Assembly (NCBI RefSeq): GCF_023156505.1
Contig: NZ_JALNMJ010000017.1
Location: forward strand, 62,001 to 126,000
Source of the DNA: Roseibium sediminicola
Lineage (GTDB): Bacteria > Pseudomonadota > Alphaproteobacteria > Rhizobiales > Stappiaceae
Direction: 5' to 3'
DNA: 64,000 nt
Shown here in pieces: positions 5,900 through 48,970 of this stretch. Made by a program: the position numbers and the translations under genes. The notes beneath the pieces were generated by a model that saw only the letters and a program-made list of their open reading frames with translations, searched no databases and was not told where the DNA came from. Numbering within the stretch: position 1 is the stretch's first letter; every line of letters begins with the position of its first letter.

Positions 5900-7177
5900 A
5901 TGTCCATTTTCGGCGATCTGCTGTCGACCGTCTTCGAGCGCCGCAGCCTGACCTTTTCCCCTGGCCGCCGCGACGCGCGGCCGATGGAGGAACTGATCGG
6001 CGCGCTGGTGGGCGCGACGGGCGAAGTCACCGGCCTGTCGCTCGCTGCCAGCATCCTGCAGCGCTACCAGGAGATGGATGACGACGGCAAACTGGCCTTC
6101 TTCCAGCACCTTGCCGGGGACATGAACATCGATCCGGACAAGGTGCGCGCAACGCTCGAAGCCTATGAGGCCGACCCGTCGAAGCAAAGCTACCGCGCGT
6201 TCATGGCCGCCGTCGAACCGGACCGGCAGGAGCTGATCCGGCGGCTCAACCAGATCCCGGGCGCGACGGAAATGCTGGTCCGAATGCGCGCCGATTTGTT
6301 GCGCCTTGGCGGCAAGGACCACGCGCTGCAGGCACTGGACCAGGATTTCCGCCATCTGTTCGTCTCCTGGTTCAACCGGGGCTTCCTGGTGCTGCGCCCG
6401 ATCAGCTGGGAGAGCCCGGCCCATATTCTGGAAAAGATCATCGCCTATGAGGCGGTCCACGAGATTGCCAGCTGGGAAGACCTTCGCCGCCGCCTCGTGC
6501 CGGGCGACCGGCGTTGCTTTGCCTTCTTTCACCCGGCGATGCCCGATGAGCCACTGATTTTCGTGGAAGTGGCCCTGACGAGCGAGATCCCGGGCTCCAT
6601 CCAGGATCTCCTGGCCGAGGACCGTGAGCCGATCACGGCGGACAAGGCCAAGACGGCGGTGTTCTATTCGATCTCCAACTGCCAGGAAGGCCTTGCAGGC
6701 ATTTCCTTCGGCAATTCCCTGATCAAGCAGGTTGCCGCGGATCTGGCAACCGAGCTGCCGGGCCTGAGGACTTTCGTAACCCTGTCGCCGATCCCCGGCC
6801 TGACACGGTGGCTGGTTGACGAGGACATCCCTTTTGCCGAGGCCGGCGAGAAACAGCTGCGCCAGCTCGCCGCCCATTATCTCCTTTCTGCCAAGCGTGG
6901 TGACGGTCAGCCGCTCGATCCCGTCGCCCGGTTTCATCTCGGCAACGGCGCACAGGTCCATGCGGTTCATGCGGAAGCCGACATTTCCGAAAAGGGGCGC
7001 GTGCAGTCGGCCGGCGTGATGGTCAATTACCTCTACGACCTCGGCAAGGTCGCTCAGAACCACGAGCGTTTTGCCAACCAGCAGGAGATTGCAGCCTCGT
7101 CGGACATCAGAAACCTGGACGCGGCAGCCAGGAAACAGGATTTGAGGCGTAAGCTGCAGGAAGATGCTGAGGGGTAG
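5900..7177 (+). CDS. Malonyl-CoA decarboxylase
   Basis: A 425-residue cytoplasmic enzyme that converts malonyl-CoA to acetyl-CoA and CO2. The C-terminal catalytic domain is clear: TLSPIPGLTRW near residue 295 and the conserved FHLGNGAQVH segment near 345, followed by SAGVMVNYLYDL near 375, which matches the eukaryotic and rhizobial (MatA-type) enzymes. An N-terminal helical domain covers about the first 90 residues. The length fits bacterial members. The gene stands alone; no malonyl-CoA synthetase (matB) is in the window. GGAGCG lies upstream of the ATG. Confidence 0.93.
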   Translation: MSIFGDLLSTVFERRSLTFSPGRRDARPMEELIGALVGATGEVTGLSLAASILQRYQEMDDDGKLAFFQHLAGDMNIDPDKVRATLEAYEADPSKQSYRAFMAAVEPDRQELIRRLNQIPGATEMLVRMRADLLRLGGKDHALQALDQDFRHLFVSWFNRGFLVLRPISWESPAHILEKIIAYEAVHEIASWEDLRRRLVPGDRRCFAFFHPAMPDEPLIFVEVALTSEIPGSIQDLLAEDREPITADKAKTAVFYSISNCQEGLAGISFGNSLIKQVAADLATELPGLRTFVTLSPIPGLTRWLVDEDIPFAEAGEKQLRQLAAHYLLSAKRGDGQPLDPVARFHLGNGAQVHAVHAEADISEKGRVQSAGVMVNYLYDLGKVAQNHERFANQQEIAASSDIRNLDAAARKQDLRRKLQEDAEG

Positions 7178-7229: not shown

Positions 7230-8219
7230 TCAGGCATCCGGCTCTGGCAACAGGCCGGGATCGGTTGCCTTGAGCTCGATCTCGCCGCGCTCGTTGCGGA
7301 TCACGAAGATCGCATCGAGGCCGGTCTTCCGGGCGCAGGCCAAGCCCTTCTCCCATCCCAGAACCATCAACGCGGTCGCCCAGGCATCTGCTTCCATGCA
7401 GGTGTCCGCCAGGACGGAGACCGACAGGACACCGTTGCAGACCGGCTGACCTTGTTGTGGGTGCATTGTATGCGAGACCGTTTGTCCAGCGATGATCCGC
7501 ATCTGCCGGTAGGACCCCGAGGTCGCAATCGCTGTGTCGGCAAGCTCTATGGCAAAGGCGCTGTCACGCACGCCCTCGACCGGCTTCTCCAGGCCCACGC
7601 ACCACGCATCGCCACCAGGCTTGCATCCCGATGCCCGGACTTCGCCGTCAATGGACACCAGGTGATCGGAAAGACCCCAGCGGTGCATCACACGACTGAG
7701 GCAATCGACACCATAGCCCTTGGCGATGCCGCACAGATCCAGTTTGCAGTCGGACAAACGGCGCAGGCGCTTGCCCTCCCGGTCAAGTTCGACCTGGCGC
7801 GCCAGGCTGCCCCAGCTTTCCCGCAAACGGACCACTTCGGCCCCATCGTCGCAGGCAACGGGACCGAAGCCCCAGGCACAAACCAGCTCGCCGACAAACG
7901 GATCGAAGGCACCGTCGCTGCCGATGCTGGTTTTCAACGCGGCATGGACGACCGCAAACATGTCCTCCGGCAGATCGACCCACTCCCCGGCCGGCGTCCG
8001 GTTGAACCGGTTGAGATCCGAACCCGGTTTCCAGGGCGACATCTGCGCGTCCACCCGGTCGACTGCCGCTTGCAGCTCCTCCTGGAGGGAGACTAGATCA
8101 ACCGGCAGCTGGGACTGGAAGACCACCGAAAAGCGTGTCCCCATGGTCGCCCCGCTGAGGGCGCTGCGCTGTGACATCATGCCGGCAACCACCGCCGGAA
8201 GAGAAAGATCGGGGATCAT
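7230..8219 (-). CDS. apbE: FAD:protein FMN transferase (ApbE)
   Basis: A 329-residue ApbE-family enzyme, which covalently attaches FMN from FAD to a Ser/Thr of a target protein. Visible family signatures are SGATMGTRFSV near residues 22-32, the MSPWKPGSDLNRFNR segment near 60-75, GAFDPFVGELVCAWGFGP near 100-118, the LDLCGIAKGYGVD segment (minus-strand reading) near 165 and VSHTMHPQQGQPV near 245. No Sec signal or lipobox is evident, which is odd for an enzyme whose usual targets are outside the cytoplasm. It overlaps the upstream PepSY/reductase gene as TGATG. Confidence 0.92.
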   Translation of the reverse strand: MIPDLSLPAVVAGMMSQRSALSGATMGTRFSVVFQSQLPVDLVSLQEELQAAVDRVDAQMSPWKPGSDLNRFNRTPAGEWVDLPEDMFAVVHAALKTSIGSDGAFDPFVGELVCAWGFGPVACDDGAEVVRLRESWGSLARQVELDREGKRLRRLSDCKLDLCGIAKGYGVDCLSRVMHRWGLSDHLVSIDGEVRASGCKPGGDAWCVGLEKPVEGVRDSAFAIELADTAIATSGSYRQMRIIAGQTVSHTMHPQQGQPVCNGVLSVSVLADTCMEADAWATALMVLGWEKGLACARKTGLDAIFVIRNERGEIELKATDPGLLPEPDA

Positions 8220-10411
8220 CAGTAAACGTCCTCCAGATAACGGCCGTCGGCCTTCAGTTTGGTCACAGTGAGGCCCAGCGGTGCGAGCACATCCTCGAAG
8301 GCGTCGCGGACGCCGTCCGCCATGCCCCGGCCACCGCAGATCATGATGTGCGCGCCTTTCTCAACGATCCGCCGCAGCTCTCCGGCTTCGGCGCGCAGGG
8401 CATCCTGCACATAGGCGCCGTCCGGCACGCGGGAGAAGCTGAGCCGGGCCCGCTGCAGCCGGCCTTCACCGATCAGCGCCTCGATCTCCTCGCCGTAGAG
8501 CAGATCGGAGCCCGGATCGCGGCTGCCCGCGAAGAGGTAGGCTGCCTTTTGCGGCCGGTTGCCCCGGGCCATGCCGACCAGGGGCGCGACCCCGGTTCCT
8601 GCACCGATCAGGATCAGCGGCGCCTTGCCGTCCGGCAGGTTGAAACGGCTATTGCCCTTGATGAAGCCCGTGATCCGGTCGCCCGGAATCAGGTCGCAGA
8701 GCTGGTTGGAGCACAGCCCGCCCGGCTGTTTGCTGACGGCGATTTCCAGGTATCCGTCCGCCGTGCTGGAGGCGAGCGAATAGAAGCGCGGCACGTCCGA
8801 GCCTGCCGGCAGGATGCCGATCAGGTCACCGGCCCTGAAGGCAGGCAGCCCCTTCGTTCCGGCGGCGGCCCGGAAGCGCAGCACCGATTTGGGTGTCTGA
8901 TAGGCCTGGCCGTAATCCCGGCGGCTGACACATTCGAAGTCGGACAGCTCCGGCAGCTCGGCTTTGTGCGCGACGTCCAGATCAATTCCGATGGTTTGAC
9001 CAAACGCCCGGCTCCAGGCGGCAAATTGCTGAGTGGACTGGCGATCAACCGTTGCCAGCTCAAGAAGCGGGTCCAGTCCCTTGTCCTTGAGAGCCTTCTC
9101 GACGTCGCCCGCATAGGCGCAGAAGGCCGGAAAACTGCGGTCGCCGAAGCCGACCACGGAACCGGCAAGTCCCGGAGCGGCCTTGAATGCCGGCAACCTG
9201 GCGAGGAAACGGCAGGCGGAGGCAGGCGCGTCGCCGTCGCCATAGGTGGCCGCGAGCACGATGAGCCTCTTCGCGGCCGGATAGGACTTCGCAAGATCGT
9301 TCATGGCGGCGGTGTGGACGCACTGGCCTTCGGCCTTCAGCGCGGCATGCAGGCTTCGGGCAAAGCCCCAGGTGGTGTTGCCTTCGCTGCCGACCAGGAT
9401 CACGGTCTCGGCCCGCGCCGCGGGATCGTTGCCGGCAATGCGCACCGGCTTGCGGATCCGCGCCGCCCAGGTGGCGAGGCCCGAGACAAACAACACCGGC
9501 ACGCAAAGACCCGCCCACCCCAGGACCAGGGCATAGGCCCAGGTGTCCTGGCCGGTATGCAGGGTGAAGGCCAGTTGATAGAGGCTTTGCGCCGGAGTGT
9601 TTTGGGTGAACGCGACAAGTTCACCGGTCGCCTGATCGATCGATCCCGTGCCCGCCGCCGTTGTCAGCGAGAAGACGTCATAGGGATCGCCCTTGGCCGG
9701 AAAGGTCAGCTCGCGCAGATCGGCCAGGCCCAGATCCTTCAAAACCGGCATTTCGGTGACGGCCATGGCCGGACCGCCGGAAGACTCAGCGAAGGTCATG
9801 AAACCGTCCAGCGCCGGAGCCCCGACAAGACCAAGCGTGGTCATCGACATGAAAAGACCGGAGACCGCCAGCAGGACGATTCCGGCAAGGGCAAACCGGC
9901 CCGCCTCCACATGAAGGCGCTGCGCGAACGTGCCTTGCGAGGGTTTGAGAAGACGTTTCCAGCTGCCGCTGCGCTTGACCAGCAGCAGCAACCCGCCAAC
10001 GGAGAGCAGGATCATAACGGCGGCACCCGTGCCGGTGGCGATCCGCCCCGCCTCTCCGGCAAAGAGCGACCGGTGCAGCTCGGTCAGCGTGAGGAAAAAC
10101 GGCGACGGTTCATAGGCGCCGAGGCTCGCACCCGTTGTCGGGTCCACCAGATCGGCGGCCATGCCCGTTTCGCCTGCGTGATAGACGATCACCTCCCCGC
10201 CCGCCTTCTGCACCAGGCGCTGCGGCTCTGTGAACCCGGCGGCAACGCCCGCCACCAGCTCGGCGACGGAGCTTTCAGCCGCGGCCACTGGCGCTGGCGA
10301 CGCCAGGCGGGAGACAGCCGGTTCCAGTGACAGAACGCTGCCGGTCACGGCCATGAAAGTGACCAGAACGCCGGCAAGCAGGGTCGGCCAGGTGTGCAGG
10401 GATCTCAGCAT
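8219..10411 (-). CDS. PepSY-TM / flavodoxin / ferredoxin-NADP reductase fusion protein
   Basis: A 730-residue membrane flavoprotein. A PepSY-associated membrane part has hydrophobic segments near residues 10-29, 128-145, 173-190 and 291-315, with histidines H6, H112, H167 and H285 placed as in heme-linked PepSY helices. A flavodoxin-like domain follows (about 335-475; GSEGNTTWGF, TYGDGDAPASA), then a reductase with the FAD motif RFYSLAS (542-548) and the NADPH motif IGAGTGVAPL (602-611). It probably carries electrons from NAD(P)H through FAD/FMN across the membrane to an extracytoplasmic acceptor. It contains DPTTGAS at 90-96, resembling an ApbE target, although PepSY repeats often read DPxTG naturally. 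Confidence 0.88.
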   Translation of the reverse strand: MLRSLHTWPTLLAGVLVTFMAVTGSVLSLEPAVSRLASPAPVAAAESSVAELVAGVAAGFTEPQRLVQKAGGEVIVYHAGETGMAADLVDPTTGASLGAYEPSPFFLTLTELHRSLFAGEAGRIATGTGAAVMILLSVGGLLLLVKRSGSWKRLLKPSQGTFAQRLHVEAGRFALAGIVLLAVSGLFMSMTTLGLVGAPALDGFMTFAESSGGPAMAVTEMPVLKDLGLADLRELTFPAKGDPYDVFSLTTAAGTGSIDQATGELVAFTQNTPAQSLYQLAFTLHTGQDTWAYALVLGWAGLCVPVLFVSGLATWAARIRKPVRIAGNDPAARAETVILVGSEGNTTWGFARSLHAALKAEGQCVHTAAMNDLAKSYPAAKRLIVLAATYGDGDAPASACRFLARLPAFKAAPGLAGSVVGFGDRSFPAFCAYAGDVEKALKDKGLDPLLELATVDRQSTQQFAAWSRAFGQTIGIDLDVAHKAELPELSDFECVSRRDYGQAYQTPKSVLRFRAAAGTKGLPAFRAGDLIGILPAGSDVPRFYSLASSTADGYLEIAVSKQPGGLCSNQLCDLIPGDRITGFIKGNSRFNLPDGKAPLILIGAGTGVAPLVGMARGNRPQKAAYLFAGSRDPGSDLLYGEEIEALIGEGRLQRARLSFSRVPDGAYVQDALRAEAGELRRIVEKGAHIMICGGRGMADGVRDAFEDVLAPLGLTVTKLKADGRYLEDVY

Positions 10412-10427
10412 CGGCGCGGCTCCGCTG

Positions 10428-10919
10428 TTACATTTTCACCGAAAGTTTGCTGACGAATCCGCCCCCGCCGGCGCTGGCACCGTTGGTCAGCGGCACGGTG
10501 GCATCGCGCGGCTTGTCGCCCCAATCCTCGACCGAGGCATCGACCACCACCTTGTAGCCGGCATCGATCAGGGCATCGGCGACATTGGCCCGCACCGTCA
10601 GGGAGCGGCCGCTGCCGACGCTGGCACCGGTGAGACCGTCGATGGAGCCGCCGGCGCTGGAAATACCGCGGGCCCAGCCTTTCAGGTGCCGGTAGTATTT
10701 CGACTTCCTGCCGGAAACCCAGAGCGTCTGCTGGTAACGGCCGGAACCGTCGACCAGATAAACGGCCAGATAAGCGCCCGGGCCGCGGTAGGTTTTCATA
10801 TCCACCGTAACGGCGACGTCCTTGGCCATCGCGGCGCCTGGAACGATCAGGGCGGATGAGAGCAAAAGAGCAGCTGCGCCTGTCCTCATGGCACTTGTCT
10901 TCAGGGCGATTTTCTTCAT
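10428..10919 (-). CDS. DUF2271 periplasmic protein with candidate FMN-attachment motif
   Basis: A 163-residue exported protein. The signal peptide covers about residues 1-32 (KK start, hydrophobic core, cleavage after AMA). The mature part matches DUF2271: the YLAVYLVDGSGRYQQTLWV segment near 50-68 and KYYRHLKGW near 75-82. It carries D94-G-L-T-G-A-S100, which fits the D-x-x-S/T-G-A-S/T consensus for FMN attachment by ApbE, so Ser100 is the predicted flavinylated residue. It sits just upstream of the PepSY/reductase gene, in a three-gene operon with apbE. Its role is probably as a periplasmic flavin electron carrier. Confidence 0.8.
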   Translation of the reverse strand: MKKIALKTSAMRTGAAALLLSSALIVPGAAMAKDVAVTVDMKTYRGPGAYLAVYLVDGSGRYQQTLWVSGRKSKYYRHLKGWARGISSAGGSIDGLTGASVGSGRSLTVRANVADALIDAGYKVVVDASVEDWGDKPRDATVPLTNGASAGGGGFVSKLSVKM

Positions 10920-11054
10920 GGCGAGTTGATCCTGGTTGCGTTAGACGCCACAAGAAAACGGGACCAAGCTGACAGGCACCTGAAGAAAAGGGAAAAACCC
11001 GTTCAGTCTGGTGTCAGGTTTGTGTGCCTGTTTCCGGTATTCGGTTCCGGCAAC

Positions 11055-11729
11055 ATGAGTGGGGAGGACGGCTTGCGGGTCTTGCTGATCGAGGACGATG
11101 TCATTCTGGGAGAGGCGATCCGCGACCATGTGGTCATGCAGGGCCATGGCGTCGACTGGGTGAAACGCCTCGACGAGGCCGCGCTGGCACTTGACGCCGT
11201 GCCTTACGAACTCCTGCTTCTCGACCTCAACCTGCCCGACGGCCTTGGCCTGACCTTCCTGAAAACCCTGCGCAAGAAAGGCAATGAAGTGCCGGTGATC
11301 ATCGTCACGGCCCAGGACCAGGTTGCCATGCGCATCGTGGGCCTCGACAGCGGTGCCGACGATTATCTGGTCAAGCCTTTCGATCTTGCCGAGCTGCGTG
11401 CCCGCCTGTCCGCGGTCGCCCGCCGATATGCCGGTGCGCCCAACCCGGAACTGACCATCGGTGACGTCACCCTGGACCTCACCCGCAAACACGCCGAGCG
11501 CGGCGGCAAGCCGGTTGAGCTGACCGCGCGCGAATGGGCCGTGCTGGAACGGCTGCTGCGCCACAAGGGCGGCATCGTCTCCAAGCCGGACATCGAGGAA
11601 AGCCTCTATGCCTTTGGCGCGGAGGTGGAGAGCAACACGGTGGAGGTCTATGTCAGCCGGCTGCGCAAGAAGATCGGCGCCGGGGCCATCACCACCGTGC
11701 GCGGCCTCGGTTACAAGGCCGGCGCATGA
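11055..11729 (+). CDS. OmpR-family response regulator
   Basis: A 224-residue response regulator. The receiver domain has acidic pocket ED near residues 13-14, phospho-acceptor D57 in LLLDLNLPD and K107 in YLVKPFD; the winged-helix DNA-binding domain is at about 130-224, ending SRLRKKIG, TVRGLGYKAG. The ATG at 11055 is chosen because the receiver fold starts right after it; the upstream in-frame codons look non-coding. It is divergent from the DUF2271/PepSY/ApbE operon across about 135 bp and overlaps the kinase gene as ATGA. It is the likely regulator of that operon (inference from position). Confidence 0.9.
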   Translation: MSGEDGLRVLLIEDDVILGEAIRDHVVMQGHGVDWVKRLDEAALALDAVPYELLLLDLNLPDGLGLTFLKTLRKKGNEVPVIIVTAQDQVAMRIVGLDSGADDYLVKPFDLAELRARLSAVARRYAGAPNPELTIGDVTLDLTRKHAERGGKPVELTAREWAVLERLLRHKGGIVSKPDIEESLYAFGAEVESNTVEVYVSRLRKKIGAGAITTVRGLGYKAGA

Positions 11730-13051
11730 CACGGCCGCTCTCCATCACCCTGCGCCTGTCACTTCTGCTCGGTCTGTCGACATTGCTCTTGTGGCTCGGC
11801 GCGGCGGCGATTGCCGTCCTGGTGCTGAAACACGAGCTGACGGAAACCTTTGACGACGCGCTTCGCCAGAGCGCGCTGCGCCTTCTACCACTCGCCGTGC
11901 ACGAACTGCGCGAACCGGACGAAGACGACGAATACCGTGTGCCAGGACTGGAAGGCCGCGACAGCGCCAATTTCGGTTATCTGATCCGCGACCCGCGCGG
12001 CCGCACCCGTCTCGTTTCAGGTGACGTGCCGCCCACAAGCTCCATCCCCTCTCCCGCTCCGGAAGGGTTCTTCGATCTCGACGGACGGCGCGCGCTGTCG
12101 CTGACCGATCCGCGCCGCGGCTACAGCATTCTCCTTGTGGAAACCGGCAGCCACAGGCAGGACGTCCTGTTTGACGCCGCCCGCGCCTTGCTCCTGCCGC
12201 TCGCCGCCCTGTTGCCGCTGATTGCGCTCGGCATCTGGGCCACGGTGCGCTTCGCCATGCGTCCTCTCGGGCGCCTGCGTAACGAAATCGCCGAGCGCGG
12301 CGGCGGCAATCTCAAGGCAATCCCGACCGATGGTCATCCAAGGGAACTGGCACCGATCGCCGAAGAGATCGCCAGTCTGCTCAGCCGCCTACGCGCCGCG
12401 CTCGATGCCGAACGCTCCTTTTCCGCCATGAGCGCCCATGAACTGCGCACGCCGATTGCCGGCGCCCTTGCGCAGGTGCAGCAGCTGCGCGCCGAACTCG
12501 GCGACCTTCCCCAGGACGCGCGTGCCCAATCCGTCGAAGACGCCTTGAAGTCGCTGGCGACGCTGTCGGAAAAACTGCTGCAGCTTGCCCGCCTGGAATC
12601 GGGTTTTGCCCGGGCGGAGACGCCGACCGACCTGTTGCCGGTGCTGAAACTGCTGCTCAGGGAGGCAGGCGACTGCAAGTTTGACCTGCGGGAGGGAGCC
12701 GATCTGACCCTTTTCGTCAATCCGGACGCCTTCAGCATTCTGCTGTCCAACCTTCTCCAGAACGCCCGCAAACACGGTGGCGTTTCCCCGGAAATCACCG
12801 TCATTGCGGGGCCCGGAAAACGGCTCAGTGTCGCCAATTCCGGCCCGGTGGTTGCTCCGGAAACGCTGGAAAAACTCGGTCGCAAATTTGTCCGTGGCGA
12901 CACCACCGCCCGCGGCACCGGCCTCGGCCTCGCATTGGTCAAGACCATCGCCGAACAGACGGGCGGCAAGGTCACCTTCCTGTCGCCACGGCCGGGGCAT
13001 ACCGGCGGGTTCGAGGCGGTGGTCACCTGGCCAGTTGTACCGCGGTCCTGA
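11726..13051 (+). CDS. Sensor histidine kinase
   Basis: A 441-residue membrane kinase paired with the upstream response regulator. Transmembrane helices lie near residues 12-33 and 155-175, enclosing a periplasmic domain of about 120 residues. A HAMP-like linker follows, then the H-box SAHELRTPIAG with H238, an N-box around NLLQNARKHG and the G-box GTGLGLALVK. The start is the ATG overlapping the response regulator stop; the longer frame is an antisense-type artefact of the regulator gene. The stimulus is unknown. Confidence 0.9.
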   Translation: MTRPLSITLRLSLLLGLSTLLLWLGAAAIAVLVLKHELTETFDDALRQSALRLLPLAVHELREPDEDDEYRVPGLEGRDSANFGYLIRDPRGRTRLVSGDVPPTSSIPSPAPEGFFDLDGRRALSLTDPRRGYSILLVETGSHRQDVLFDAARALLLPLAALLPLIALGIWATVRFAMRPLGRLRNEIAERGGGNLKAIPTDGHPRELAPIAEEIASLLSRLRAALDAERSFSAMSAHELRTPIAGALAQVQQLRAELGDLPQDARAQSVEDALKSLATLSEKLLQLARLESGFARAETPTDLLPVLKLLLREAGDCKFDLREGADLTLFVNPDAFSILLSNLLQNARKHGGVSPEITVIAGPGKRLSVANSGPVVAPETLEKLGRKFVRGDTTARGTGLGLALVKTIAEQTGGKVTFLSPRPGHTGGFEAVVTWPVVPRS

Positions 13052-37567: not shown

Positions 37568-38866
37568 TCACAGCTCCGCTTTCGGCCCGACCACCCAGTT
37601 GCGGCCCTTTTTCTTGGCCTCGTAAAGGCGTTGGTCCGCGGTCTTGAACAGGCGTTCGAGCGTGTCGCCATCTTCCGGCGCGCAGGCGACGCCGACGCTG
37701 ACCGTGATCTTTTCGGGCAGATAGACCTTGCTGAACCGCTCGATGGTCTTGCGCAGGCGCTCGGCCAGCGACGTCGCCCCGTCGGCGGGCAGTTTCTCGC
37801 ACAGCAGCACGAATTCCTCACCGCCGACCCGGTACAAATGATCGTCGGAACGCAGGTTTTCCGTCAGAAGGCGCGCGACCGTCTTCAACACTTCGTCACC
37901 CGCCTGATGGCCGTGCCGGTCGTTGACCTGCTTGAAATGATCGATATCGATCACCAGCAAGGACACCGCCCGTCCTTCCGCCAGATTCCGCGCCAGGATC
38001 GCCGGGGCGTTCTGGTCATACTGGCTGCGGTCGAGCGCGCCGGTCAGGTGGTCGCGGATCGAGGCTTCGAGCAGCTTGTGATAGCGCTCCCGGTAGGTCA
38101 GCACCTGGAAGACGTCTTTCAGGGGCCGGTCGGTCAGCCAGCCCTTCTCGGTGTCGAAATATTTCAGATAGACGATGAAAAGTACCGTATAGACGACCGT
38201 CGCGACCATCTTGGCGACCCAGCCGCCGAAAAAGACATGGCCCGGCGCACCGGAAACATAATGCAGCGCCAGGAAGAAACCCGCCTGATCGAAGGTCAGG
38301 ACAACCGCGCCGCAGATCAGGAAACGCAGTCCCAGATGCCGGCCGAGCCAGTCGCCGATCCGTTCATACAGGATGATGATCAGGATGCTGTCAATGAACA
38401 GGAGGATGGTGCCCCAGACCATCAGCAGCCCCATCTCGTCGATAAAGGCGAAGTCCGGACCGTGGCTGTTGGTGACGTCGATTGTCTCGTGGTTCCTCAA
38501 GATCATCACCAGGGCGACGATCAGGAAATTGCCGATCAGAAGGCCATAGATCGGCTGGCGCACCGCAAGCGCGTCCTCGCGAACATAAAGCAACAGGATC
38601 ATCAACAACTTGCCGGAGAACAGCACCGTAGAGCCGGGCGAGACGATGCCGAAGGGCAGCTGGATGTAGAACACGCTGGCGAGATAGGTCTCCAGAAAAT
38701 GCATCACGCCCAGCGCGCACATGAAGACGCCGATGCCAATCACCTTGCGTGCGCGCAGCAAGCTCATCATGACGGTGAAATAAACGGCGGCCTGGGCAAA
38801 GAGGAGGAGAACGTTGGAAGTGGCCATGGGCAGTCCGGATTGTCTTTCTTGCAGCAATGTATGCAT
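37568..38866 (-). CDS. Membrane diguanylate cyclase (GGDEF)
   Basis: A 432-residue protein. Seven or so membrane helices occupy residues about 17-235, followed by a GGDEF domain at about 265-425 with GGEEF at 348-352 and the DIDHFKQVND motif at 307-316. An RxxD-type inhibitory site is not obvious. It synthesises cyclic-di-GMP at the inner membrane. The start could be the ATG at 38866 or at 38827 (13 residues later); neither has a strong ribosome site. It follows the other cyclic-di-GMP gene on the same strand but is separated by repeats. Confidence 0.92.
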   Translation of the reverse strand: MHTLLQERQSGLPMATSNVLLLFAQAAVYFTVMMSLLRARKVIGIGVFMCALGVMHFLETYLASVFYIQLPFGIVSPGSTVLFSGKLLMILLLYVREDALAVRQPIYGLLIGNFLIVALVMILRNHETIDVTNSHGPDFAFIDEMGLLMVWGTILLFIDSILIIILYERIGDWLGRHLGLRFLICGAVVLTFDQAGFFLALHYVSGAPGHVFFGGWVAKMVATVVYTVLFIVYLKYFDTEKGWLTDRPLKDVFQVLTYRERYHKLLEASIRDHLTGALDRSQYDQNAPAILARNLAEGRAVSLLVIDIDHFKQVNDRHGHQAGDEVLKTVARLLTENLRSDDHLYRVGGEEFVLLCEKLPADGATSLAERLRKTIERFSKVYLPEKITVSVGVACAPEDGDTLERLFKTADQRLYEAKKKGRNWVVGPKAEL

Positions 38867-48159: not shown

Positions 48160-48957
48160 TTACGCCGCTTCGGCCCGTTTCATCTTCTGGTGCTCGTCTT
48201 CGACCAGGCCGATTTTCCAATAGCCTGAAATGTAGGTGTCCTTTTTCGGCACCTGGCGCTCATTGTGAAGATGATCCCGGAGCGCCCGGATCACCGAGCT
48301 TTCCCCGGCAATGCAGGTCTGAATGGTGCCGGACGGCCAGTCGAGGGACCGGACCAGGTCGACTTGGGCGGTCGAGGGGCGGTGCACGTCCGCCTGGACC
48401 AGCCAGCGGATGTCGATGCCGGCGGGCGCGGAAATCTCGCGAATGTCCTCATCGCACGGTACTTCGAACACACAGAGACCCCTGGCATCGGCCGGCATCT
48501 GCTCCAGCGTCGCCTCGACCACCGGCATGGCCGACAGGTCGGCGGCCAGCAGATACCAGTCGGCATGGAACTCGGTGAGTTTCGGCTGGCTCGGGCCGAA
48601 AAAGCCAAGGAAGGAACCCGGCCCCGCCGCCTGCGCCCAGCGCGTCGCCGGGCCTTCGTCGCCGTGGGCGACAAAATCGATGTCGAGTTCCAGAACATCT
48701 TCCCGATAGGCGCGCACGGTGTAGGTGCGAACAGGATGGATCTTTTCCTCCGGCCCGTCGGGTGCAAAATACGCTTCGAACGCGTCCCGGCTCTCGCCGT
48801 CGCGCGGCAGCACCAGCTTGCAATTGGCGCCGTGATGGCCCTTCGGAAACCCTTCCAGCTCCGGCCCCGCAAAGGTGACACGAATGAAGTTCGGGCTGAG
48901 AGGAACGGCGGATTTGACGGTCAGGAACCTGGGACGGCGTTTGGGAAGTCTGGCCAC
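48160..48957 (-). CDS. Siderophore-interacting protein (FAD-dependent ferric reductase type)
   Basis: A 265-residue SIP/ViuB-family cytoplasmic flavoprotein that reduces ferric siderophores to release iron. The FAD domain carries HPVRTYTVRAYRED near residues 74-87, with family features GPASRW-like GPATRWAQAAGPGS near 104 and LLAADLSAMPVVEATLEQMP near 135; the C-terminal SGYWKIGLVEDEHQKMK is typical. GTG at 48957 has AAAGAGG upstream; a GTG two codons earlier is the alternative. A RirA-like box lies just upstream. Confidence 0.9.
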   Translation of the reverse strand: MARLPKRRPRFLTVKSAVPLSPNFIRVTFAGPELEGFPKGHHGANCKLVLPRDGESRDAFEAYFAPDGPEEKIHPVRTYTVRAYREDVLELDIDFVAHGDEGPATRWAQAAGPGSFLGFFGPSQPKLTEFHADWYLLAADLSAMPVVEATLEQMPADARGLCVFEVPCDEDIREISAPAGIDIRWLVQADVHRPSTAQVDLVRSLDWPSGTIQTCIAGESSVIRALRDHLHNERQVPKKDTYISGYWKIGLVEDEHQKMKRAEAA

Positions 48958-48970
48958 GGCCACCTCTTTA

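What the first reader, a model, noticed from the sequence alone, without database searches (positions are those of the whole stretch)
7230..13051. Self-contained extracytoplasmic flavinylation and electron-transfer locus with its own two-component system
apbE, a PepSY/flavodoxin/NADPH-reductase fusion and a DUF2271 protein form an overlapping operon, divergent from an OmpR-type regulator/kinase pair. The parts seen would carry electrons from cytoplasmic NADPH to a flavinylated periplasmic protein. ApbE-PepSY-DUF2271 associations have been described by genome surveys of flavinylation, but the physiological acceptor is unknown, and the dedicated kinase may report the signal that calls for it.
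Basis: partly seen in the sequence, partly recalled or inferred. Interest (0 to 1): 0.7.

Follow-up and report, generated by a model that had tools for sequence, protein, structure and literature searches.

The report
Sensor-controlled flavin electron-transfer gene module
Many proteobacteria carry a small gene set that probably moves electrons from inside the cell to a flavin-carrying protein outside it; this work finds that the set travels with its own sensor-regulator pair and a distinctive DNA switch, which makes its unknown trigger testable.

Summary
In detail: apbE, a PepSY_TM/flavodoxin/reductase fusion and a DUF2271 gene form an operon divergent from an OmpR-type regulator/kinase pair. 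The electron-transfer parts are a known kind, the PepSY-like flavinylation system (PMC8238504). Three findings go beyond that. (1) The regulator/kinase pair is a conserved partner: 34 of 38 loci with fusion and DUF2271; 67 of 80 named alpha-, beta- and gammaproteobacterial loci by tally. (2) Its likely target site is visible: CTGA-N7-CTGA upstream of the regulator in 34 of 35 and 61 of 66 regions; a 49-bp four-half-site form (window 10969-11017) occurs 34 times in 297 genomes, each time at this regulator family or its module, never for the reversed control. (3) The module's ApbE mostly lacks room for an export signal (start to active motif 25 residues or fewer in 75 of 98 copies), though DUF2271 has a leader; the window's own copy is ambiguous. 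Flavin attachment before export is therefore possible. Periplasmic ferric reduction with an iron-linked signal is the likeliest role: inferred, not shown. New variant of a known kind.

The parts
7230..8219 (-). ApbE, FAD:protein FMN transferase; export signal ambiguous in this copy, absent by hydropathy in most relatives
   Evidence: Pfam PF02424; N-terminus MIPDLSLPAVVAGMM, no upstream in-frame start codon in the last 40 residues shown; hydropathy 2.15 (8-residue) and 1.46 (15-residue)
8219..10411 (-). PepSY_TM / flavodoxin / NAD(P)H reductase fusion; His6, His113, His167, His285 invariant in the alignments
10428..10919 (-). DUF2271 secreted protein, presumed covalent-FMN carrier
   Evidence: PF10029; hydrophobic leader; model pLDDT 79.9
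10620..10640 (-). Motif DGLTGAS of DUF2271 (residues 94-100; predicted FMN on Ser100)
   Evidence: numbering from A4; motif counts; motif validated in another DUF2271 in PMC8238504 (passages)
10969..11017 (.). Composite operator: CTGAC-N6-CTGAA and, with starts 33 bp apart, its inverted copy; four half-sites
11055..11729 (+). OmpR/PmrA-type response regulator
   Evidence: Pfam; best NCBIfam model PmrA, 203.9 bits against a cut-off of 330
11726..13051 (+). Membrane histidine kinase with a short sensor loop between two hydrophobic stretches
   Evidence: Pfam HisKA + HATPase_c; alignment, membrane stretches judged by eye
11909..11923 (+). REPDE (RExxE) in the sensor loop, residues 62-66
   Evidence: ExxE in iron-sensing kinases: PMC12666569 (passages)

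Best explanation
A dedicated two-component system switches on a transmembrane electron-transfer module. Shown by sequence: the regulator family has a conserved direct-repeat site before its own gene and, in many loci, before the module, and the composite form was found nowhere else in 297 genomes of the order. Inferred: the phosphorylated regulator binds the four half-sites at 10969-11017 and activates both divergent transcripts. NADPH is oxidised at the reductase domain of the fusion; electrons pass through the flavodoxin FMN and two hemes in the PepSY_TM domain (His6/113/167/285) to FMN covalently bound to Ser100 of periplasmic DUF2271, which reduces a periplasmic acceptor, most likely ferric iron or a ferric chelate. 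ApbE attaches the FMN, probably in the cytoplasm before or during Sec export in most of these loci. The kinase senses periplasmic iron, or a redox or envelope state linked to it; in most relatives a small secreted PepSY_2 protein probably acts on the kinase, while the window lineage lacks it and has an RExxE loop.
For: Operator: 34 of 35 and 61 of 66 regulator upstream regions, 53 against 1.07 and 111 against 3.16 expected, other spacings 0-5 and 0-7; 34 of 34 composite sites in 297 genomes at the module or regulator family, reversed control 0. Electron path: Pfam, invariant His, diflavin reductase fold. Flavin motif: [ST]GAS in 113 of 119 DUF2271 copies. ApbE: start to TMGT motif 25 residues or fewer in 75 of 98 copies; 8-residue hydropathy of 1.6 or more in 5 of 97 against 117 of 117 DUF2271 copies. 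Iron link: Caulobacter genes with these names, CCNA_03155-03159, are listed as iron-responsive (PMC3751524 passage) and insertions in them lower fitness with EDTA (PMC12004947 passages); in G279 the composite operator precedes PepSY_2 with VIT1 downstream; ferric-reductase-like and b561 genes sit in some clusters.
Against: No binding, expression, heme, flavin or iron data exist for this locus. No TonB receptor, VIT1 or DUF4198 was found among the locus and flanking genes that I examined. Plain ExxE in the kinase loops is barely above chance (15 of 20 against 9.78 expected without PepSY_2; 22 of 74 against 16.97 with it) and duplicate loci are included. The regulator is below the NCBIfam cut-off of each of the 25 models shown. 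The window ApbE is about as hydrophobic at its N-terminus as two exported-type ApbEs of the same genome (2.15 against 2.44 and 1.90 on 8 residues), so a weak leader is not excluded here. 13 of 80 named loci lack the pair by tally; Caulobacter uses Fur (PMC8238504 passage).
Confidence: 0.58

Rival explanations
1. The module is an envelope repair or detoxification reductase (for oxidised proteins, hypochlorite, quinones or the like), and the kinase senses envelope or oxidative stress rather than iron.
For: A small PepSY protein acts on the kinase DbfS, which answers outer-membrane stress in Vibrio (PMC12714742 passages). PepSY_2 is in 61 of 80 named loci. No iron-uptake gene adjoins the window locus among the genes examined.
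Against: VIT1, ferric-reductase-like and cytochrome neighbours in relatives and the iron phenotypes of the Caulobacter genes.
Confidence: 0.25
2. The kinase senses another metal (copper, zinc, uranium, lanthanides), with PepSY_2 and the poly-aspartate protein as metal-binding partners, and the module reduces that metal.
For: PepSY-domain proteins bind uranium, iron or lanthanides (PMC8963506, PMC11845868, PMC12714742 passages and references); the kinase scores with heavy-metal families, below cut-off; a poly-aspartate protein is in 14 of 35 named alpha loci.
Against: The window locus lacks both small proteins, and PepSY_2 was not found in its genome, yet kinase, operator and reductase are kept.
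Confidence: 0.15
3. ApbE of this locus is exported and flavinylates DUF2271 in the periplasm as in the textbook model, or its real substrate is another protein.
For: DUF2271 has a leader; characterised ApbEs mostly act on secreted targets from the periplasm (PMC12052999 passages); the window ApbE N-terminus scores 2.15 on 8 residues, between the NQR- and nos-linked ApbEs of the same genome (2.44 and 1.90).
Against: The window N-terminus has no basic residue before its hydrophobic stretch; its close relatives L062-L064 and most other copies are not hydrophobic there, and 75 of 98 copies reach the TMGT motif within 25 residues of the first possible start.
Confidence: 0.3

Closest known systems
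PepSY-like flavinylation system (PMC8238504)
   Same: PepSY_TM protein, ApbE, DUF2271 with [ST]GA[ST] motif; 3220 clusters, 2833 with DUF2271, 1077 PepSY genes with a NAD-binding domain (passages)
   Different: In the main text 'histidine kinase' and 'sensor' do not occur, 'two-component' only in a reference title, and Fur is the regulator named (supplements not seen). Here a conserved regulator/kinase pair with an operator, and an ApbE family mostly without export signal; no DUF4198 among the genes examined
Caulobacter CCNA_03155-03159 (PMC3751524, PMC12004947)
   Same: DUF2271, ApbE and NADPH flavoprotein in one iron-responsive cluster; insertions lower fitness with EDTA (passages)
   Different: DUF4198 present and Fur control; no kinase pair mentioned in the passages seen. 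Its sequences were not compared here
PmrAB and BqsRS iron-sensing two-component systems
   Same: BasR/PmrA is the best solved match of the regulator; 11-bp-period repeat (BqsR TTAAG-N6-TTAAG, PMC4682146 passages); ExxE-type loop (PMC12666569 passages)
   Different: Operator CTGAC-N6-CTGAA; regulator below the PmrA and QseB cut-offs; composite sites confined to one module, whereas 432 BqsR-like sites are reported with two or fewer mutations
DbfQRS of Vibrio cholerae (PMC12714742)
   Same: Small secreted PepSY protein near a kinase/regulator pair in most named relatives (61 of 80)
   Different: No PepSY_2 at the window locus and none found in its genome; the neighbouring output is an electron-transfer module, not biofilm

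Membership tests
PepSY-like flavinylation system | PepSY_TM protein encoded in a cluster with ApbE and/or DUF2271 | tested here: met
PepSY-like flavinylation system | [ST]GA[ST] motif in the substrate | tested here: met
   DGLTGAS in the window; 113 of 119 copies read carry [ST]GAS (111 of 115 scored, plus L081 and L173, which the pattern missed); exceptions: L063, L064, L144, L145 (two genomes, each fetched twice) TGPS, L159 AGAS, L147 TGGS
PepSY-like flavinylation system | Signal peptide on at least one of the target genes | tested here: met
   DUF2271 leader by hydropathy only; no signal-peptide program was run
PepSY-like flavinylation system | Covalent FMN on the substrate | not testable with these tools
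   needs gel fluorescence or mass spectrometry
Canonical exported ApbE | N-terminal export or lipoprotein signal | tested here: inconclusive
   Window copy ambiguous: 2.15 (8 residues) and 1.46 (15 residues), against 2.44/1.51 and 1.90/1.79 for the NQR- and nos-linked ApbEs of the same genome. As a family not met: 5 of 97 reach 1.6 on 8 residues, 0 of 95 on 15; the 98 rows include two ApbEs not of this module (L082, L083) and duplicates
FoxB-like di-heme PepSY_TM reductase | Four conserved membrane histidines | tested here: met
   His6, His113, His167, His285 invariant in 12 of 12 and 24 of 24 sequences; two heme sites of two histidines each from PMC11334425 passages; that these four are the ligands is inferred
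FoxB-like di-heme PepSY_TM reductase | Fold match to the solved FoxB structure | tested here: inconclusive
   the diflavin part filled the lists; a sequence search of the membrane part found no relative
PmrAB/QseBC two-component systems | Curated family score of the regulator | tested here: not met
   PmrA 203.9 of 330, QseB 189.4 of 345
Iron-sensing kinases | ExxE motif in the periplasmic loop | tested here: inconclusive
   RExxE in the window; [RHK]ExxE in 12 of 20 loci without PepSY_2 (2.26 expected) and 19 of 74 with it (2.59 expected); plain ExxE 15 of 20 (9.78 expected) and 22 of 74 (16.97 expected); six loci left out, duplicates included
DbfQRS-like modules | Small PepSY protein near the kinase/regulator pair | tested here: not met
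   none at the window locus; none found in the genome, in a search without positive control

The most novel reading that the evidence does not exclude
Probability: 0.32. Interest if true: 0.78.

Novelty: new variant of a known kind. Interest (0 to 1): 0.62.

Why it matters
Extracytosolic flavinylation is reported for about half of bacteria (PMC8238504 abstract), but I know of no established trigger or acceptor for the DUF2271 type. A conserved operator gives a direct reporter assay for the trigger: fuse 10969-11017 to a reporter and screen metals, redox agents and envelope stress. The missing export signal in most of these ApbEs asks whether covalent flavin can be attached before Sec export; how FAD reaches ApbE is called obscure in the review PMC12052999 (passage).

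Tried and rejected
The first genome-contig scan, with the single window protein, found no relative; an alignment query worked. A looser single-box pattern over 297 genomes matched 61 genomes and also gave reversed-control matches; of 41 single-box loci looked at (11, 30 of those), only 22 hold module or regulator genes (10 of 11 and 12 of 30), so I rely on the composite operator and on position-specific counts. PDB: no sequence relative for DUF2271; its model gave only weak matches such as Ig-like and C2 domains, best E 0.11. FoxB is not among the rows shown in either fold search, which does not exclude it. No sigma-70-like promoter was found around the operator. Literature searches touching this pairing listed no paper on it; only listings or passages were seen, supplements were out of reach, and most subscription papers are not held. 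DPTTGAS in the PepSY part of the window fusion looked like a second flavinylation site, but TGAS is there in only 4 of 12 aligned sequences. The DUF4405 gene near the operator in G133 lies on the opposite strand from the gene beside the operator, so I do not count it as controlled. My first reading that the window ApbE itself clearly lacks an export signal was dropped; I lowered the best explanation from 0.6 to 0.58, the novel case from 0.35 to 0.32, and raised the export rival from 0.25 to 0.30.

Full report
ApbE (7230-8219), a 730-residue PepSY_TM/flavodoxin/NAD(P)H-reductase fusion (8219-10411) and a DUF2271 protein (10428-10919) lie on the minus strand; an OmpR-type regulator (11055-11729) and a histidine kinase (11726-13051) diverge on the plus strand. 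Two joints overlap, by one base (PepSY/apbE) and four bases (regulator/kinase); DUF2271 and PepSY are 16 bp apart. The window lies in a 6.3-Mb genome; among named records the closest fusion proteins are those of Stappia sp. BW2 and Roseibium aggregatum (71% and 70%).

The regulator/kinase pair is a conserved partner. I fetched 40 stretches: the 10 full-length matches of the fusion in 60 relatives, and 30 of the 52 DUF2271 places of a survey of 297 genomes of the order, in which 44 genomes had a match and 41 passed the Pfam cut-off. By comparison with the window proteins the fusion and DUF2271 occur together in 38 of the 40 (not L082, L083), and in 34 of those 38 regulator and kinase are next to them. 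The four without are L065 (the contig begins 82 bases before the DUF2271 match), L089, L100 and L101. Three further survey loci fetched later (L138-L140) also have the pair. Among the 34, the pair is divergent from DUF2271 in 23 and in the same direction in 11: the association is conserved, the order is not. In one of the 67, L174, the contig ends at the regulator and the kinase hit lies elsewhere. In the own genome the next regulator is only 42% identical.

The operator is the strongest new result. Aligning the window with its three closest relatives showed conserved sites. Exact CTGA-N7-CTGA, an 11-bp-period direct repeat, lies within 220 bp upstream of the regulator in 34 of 35 loci (not L093): 53 matches against 1.07 expected from the density in the same loci, while spacers of 3-6 and 8-13 give 0-5. 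In the named set it is in 61 of 66 upstream regions of 250 bp, 111 against 3.16 expected, other spacers 0-7. 266 sites collected near these genes, duplicates included, read A-S-CTGAC-R-G-C-A-A-S-CTGAA-G; the columns outside the two CTGA words were free. In the window and many relatives two such sites face each other with starts 33 bp apart. That 49-bp composite pattern, searched over 297 genomes of the order, has 34 sites in 32 genomes and none for the reversed control. All 34 lie within about 450 bp upstream of this regulator family, of DUF2271 or the poly-aspartate gene before it, or of PepSY_2. The pattern was drawn from such loci, but the absence of other sites was not built in. In the own genome it occurs once, at 10969-11017. 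In a few genomes the same regulator and operator adjoin other partners: FMN_bind, ApbE, an NQR/RNF-like NAD-binding membrane protein and a b561 in G326; PepSY_2 and b561 in G238 and G165; and, without a regulator beside it, PepSY_2 with VIT1 downstream in G279. That VIT1 shares the transcript is inferred from strand and order.

Extra parts in relatives. A small secreted PepSY_2 protein (PF13670) is in 61 of 80 named loci. It is absent from the window locus and was not found in its genome (a search without positive control). A secreted poly-aspartate protein with a conserved C-terminus near NGLFGNG and no Pfam or NCBIfam match is in 14 of 35 named alpha loci and 0 of 45 others. Cytochrome b561 is in 6 of 35 and 0 of 45, a ferric-reductase-like protein in 2 of 35 and 10 of 45 (example domains).

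ApbE topology. Of 98 ApbE copies (two of them, L082 and L083, not of this module, and duplicates included; one row not scored), 75 reach the TMGT motif within 25 residues of the first possible start. On an 8-residue hydropathy window 5 of 97 reach 1.6 (window, L172, L174, L183 and L083) against 117 of 117 DUF2271 copies; on 15 residues 0 of 95 against 106 of 117 (an earlier form of the count, 0 of 98 against 104 of 115, is). The two other ApbEs of the own genome, one beside NqrA and one beside NosL, have twin-arginine-like leaders by eye and score 2.44 and 1.90 on 8 residues, 1.51 and 1.79 on 15. The window copy scores 2.15 and 1.46, so for it the hydropathy test is inconclusive; it has no basic residue before the hydrophobic stretch, and its close relatives L062-L064 are not hydrophobic there. 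Cytosolic ApbE is known for a soluble fumarate reductase (PMC12052999 passage); pairing with an exported carrier would be unusual.

What the kinase senses is open. BasR/PmrA is the best solved match of the regulator, BqsR uses an 11-bp-period repeat (PMC4682146 passages), and iron-sensing kinases share an ExxE loop motif (PMC12666569 passages). The window loop reads HELREPDED. [RHK]ExxE lies within 30 residues of the LPLA anchor in 12 of 20 loci without PepSY_2 and 19 of 74 with it, where shuffling gives 2.26 and 2.59; but plain ExxE is 15 of 20 against 9.78 and 22 of 74 against 16.97, six loci lacked the anchor, duplicates are included, and in the PepSY_2 group many matches sit further along the loop. 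This is a hint, not a test. Iron is favoured by the Caulobacter genes and the VIT1 and ferric-reductase neighbours; the regulator reached no cut-off among the 25 best NCBIfam models shown.

Novelty. The parts and the electron-transfer idea are known; a conserved regulator/kinase pair with its own operator, and an ApbE family mostly without export signal, were not found described in the searches made or in the main-text passages of PMC8238504. Supplementary tables were not seen and may list these neighbours.

Noticed in passing
48160-48963 (-): A siderophore-interacting FAD protein (PF04954/PF08021), about 35 kb from the locus; the composite operator occurs in this genome only at the locus.
   Followed up: partly
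L063 8380-8841, L064 10741-11202 (same genomes as L144, L145): DUF2271 of two close relatives has TGPS in place of TGAS at the flavinylation motif; whether it can still be flavinylated is unknown.
   Followed up: no
L080 9104-9478 and 14 named alpha loci: Small secreted poly-aspartate proteins with a conserved C-terminus near NGLFGNG, no Pfam or NCBIfam match for the one scanned.
   Followed up: partly
L065 and L066 (both G025): One genome of the window's genus holds two copies of the module, each about 47-48% identical to the window's fusion; the genus has two versions, patchily present.
   Followed up: no
L090 10425-13145; L257: A transporter set with an SsuA-like binding protein (below the NCBIfam cut-off) sits between DUF2271 and the regulator, or beside the regulator without DUF2271 in the stretch held; substrate unknown.
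   Followed up: partly
37568-38866 (-): A VUPS-GGDEF protein (vitamin-uptake-like sensor domain with diguanylate cyclase domain).
   Followed up: no
5900-7177 (+): A malonyl-CoA decarboxylase gene ends about 50 bp from the end of apbE, convergent with it.
   Followed up: no
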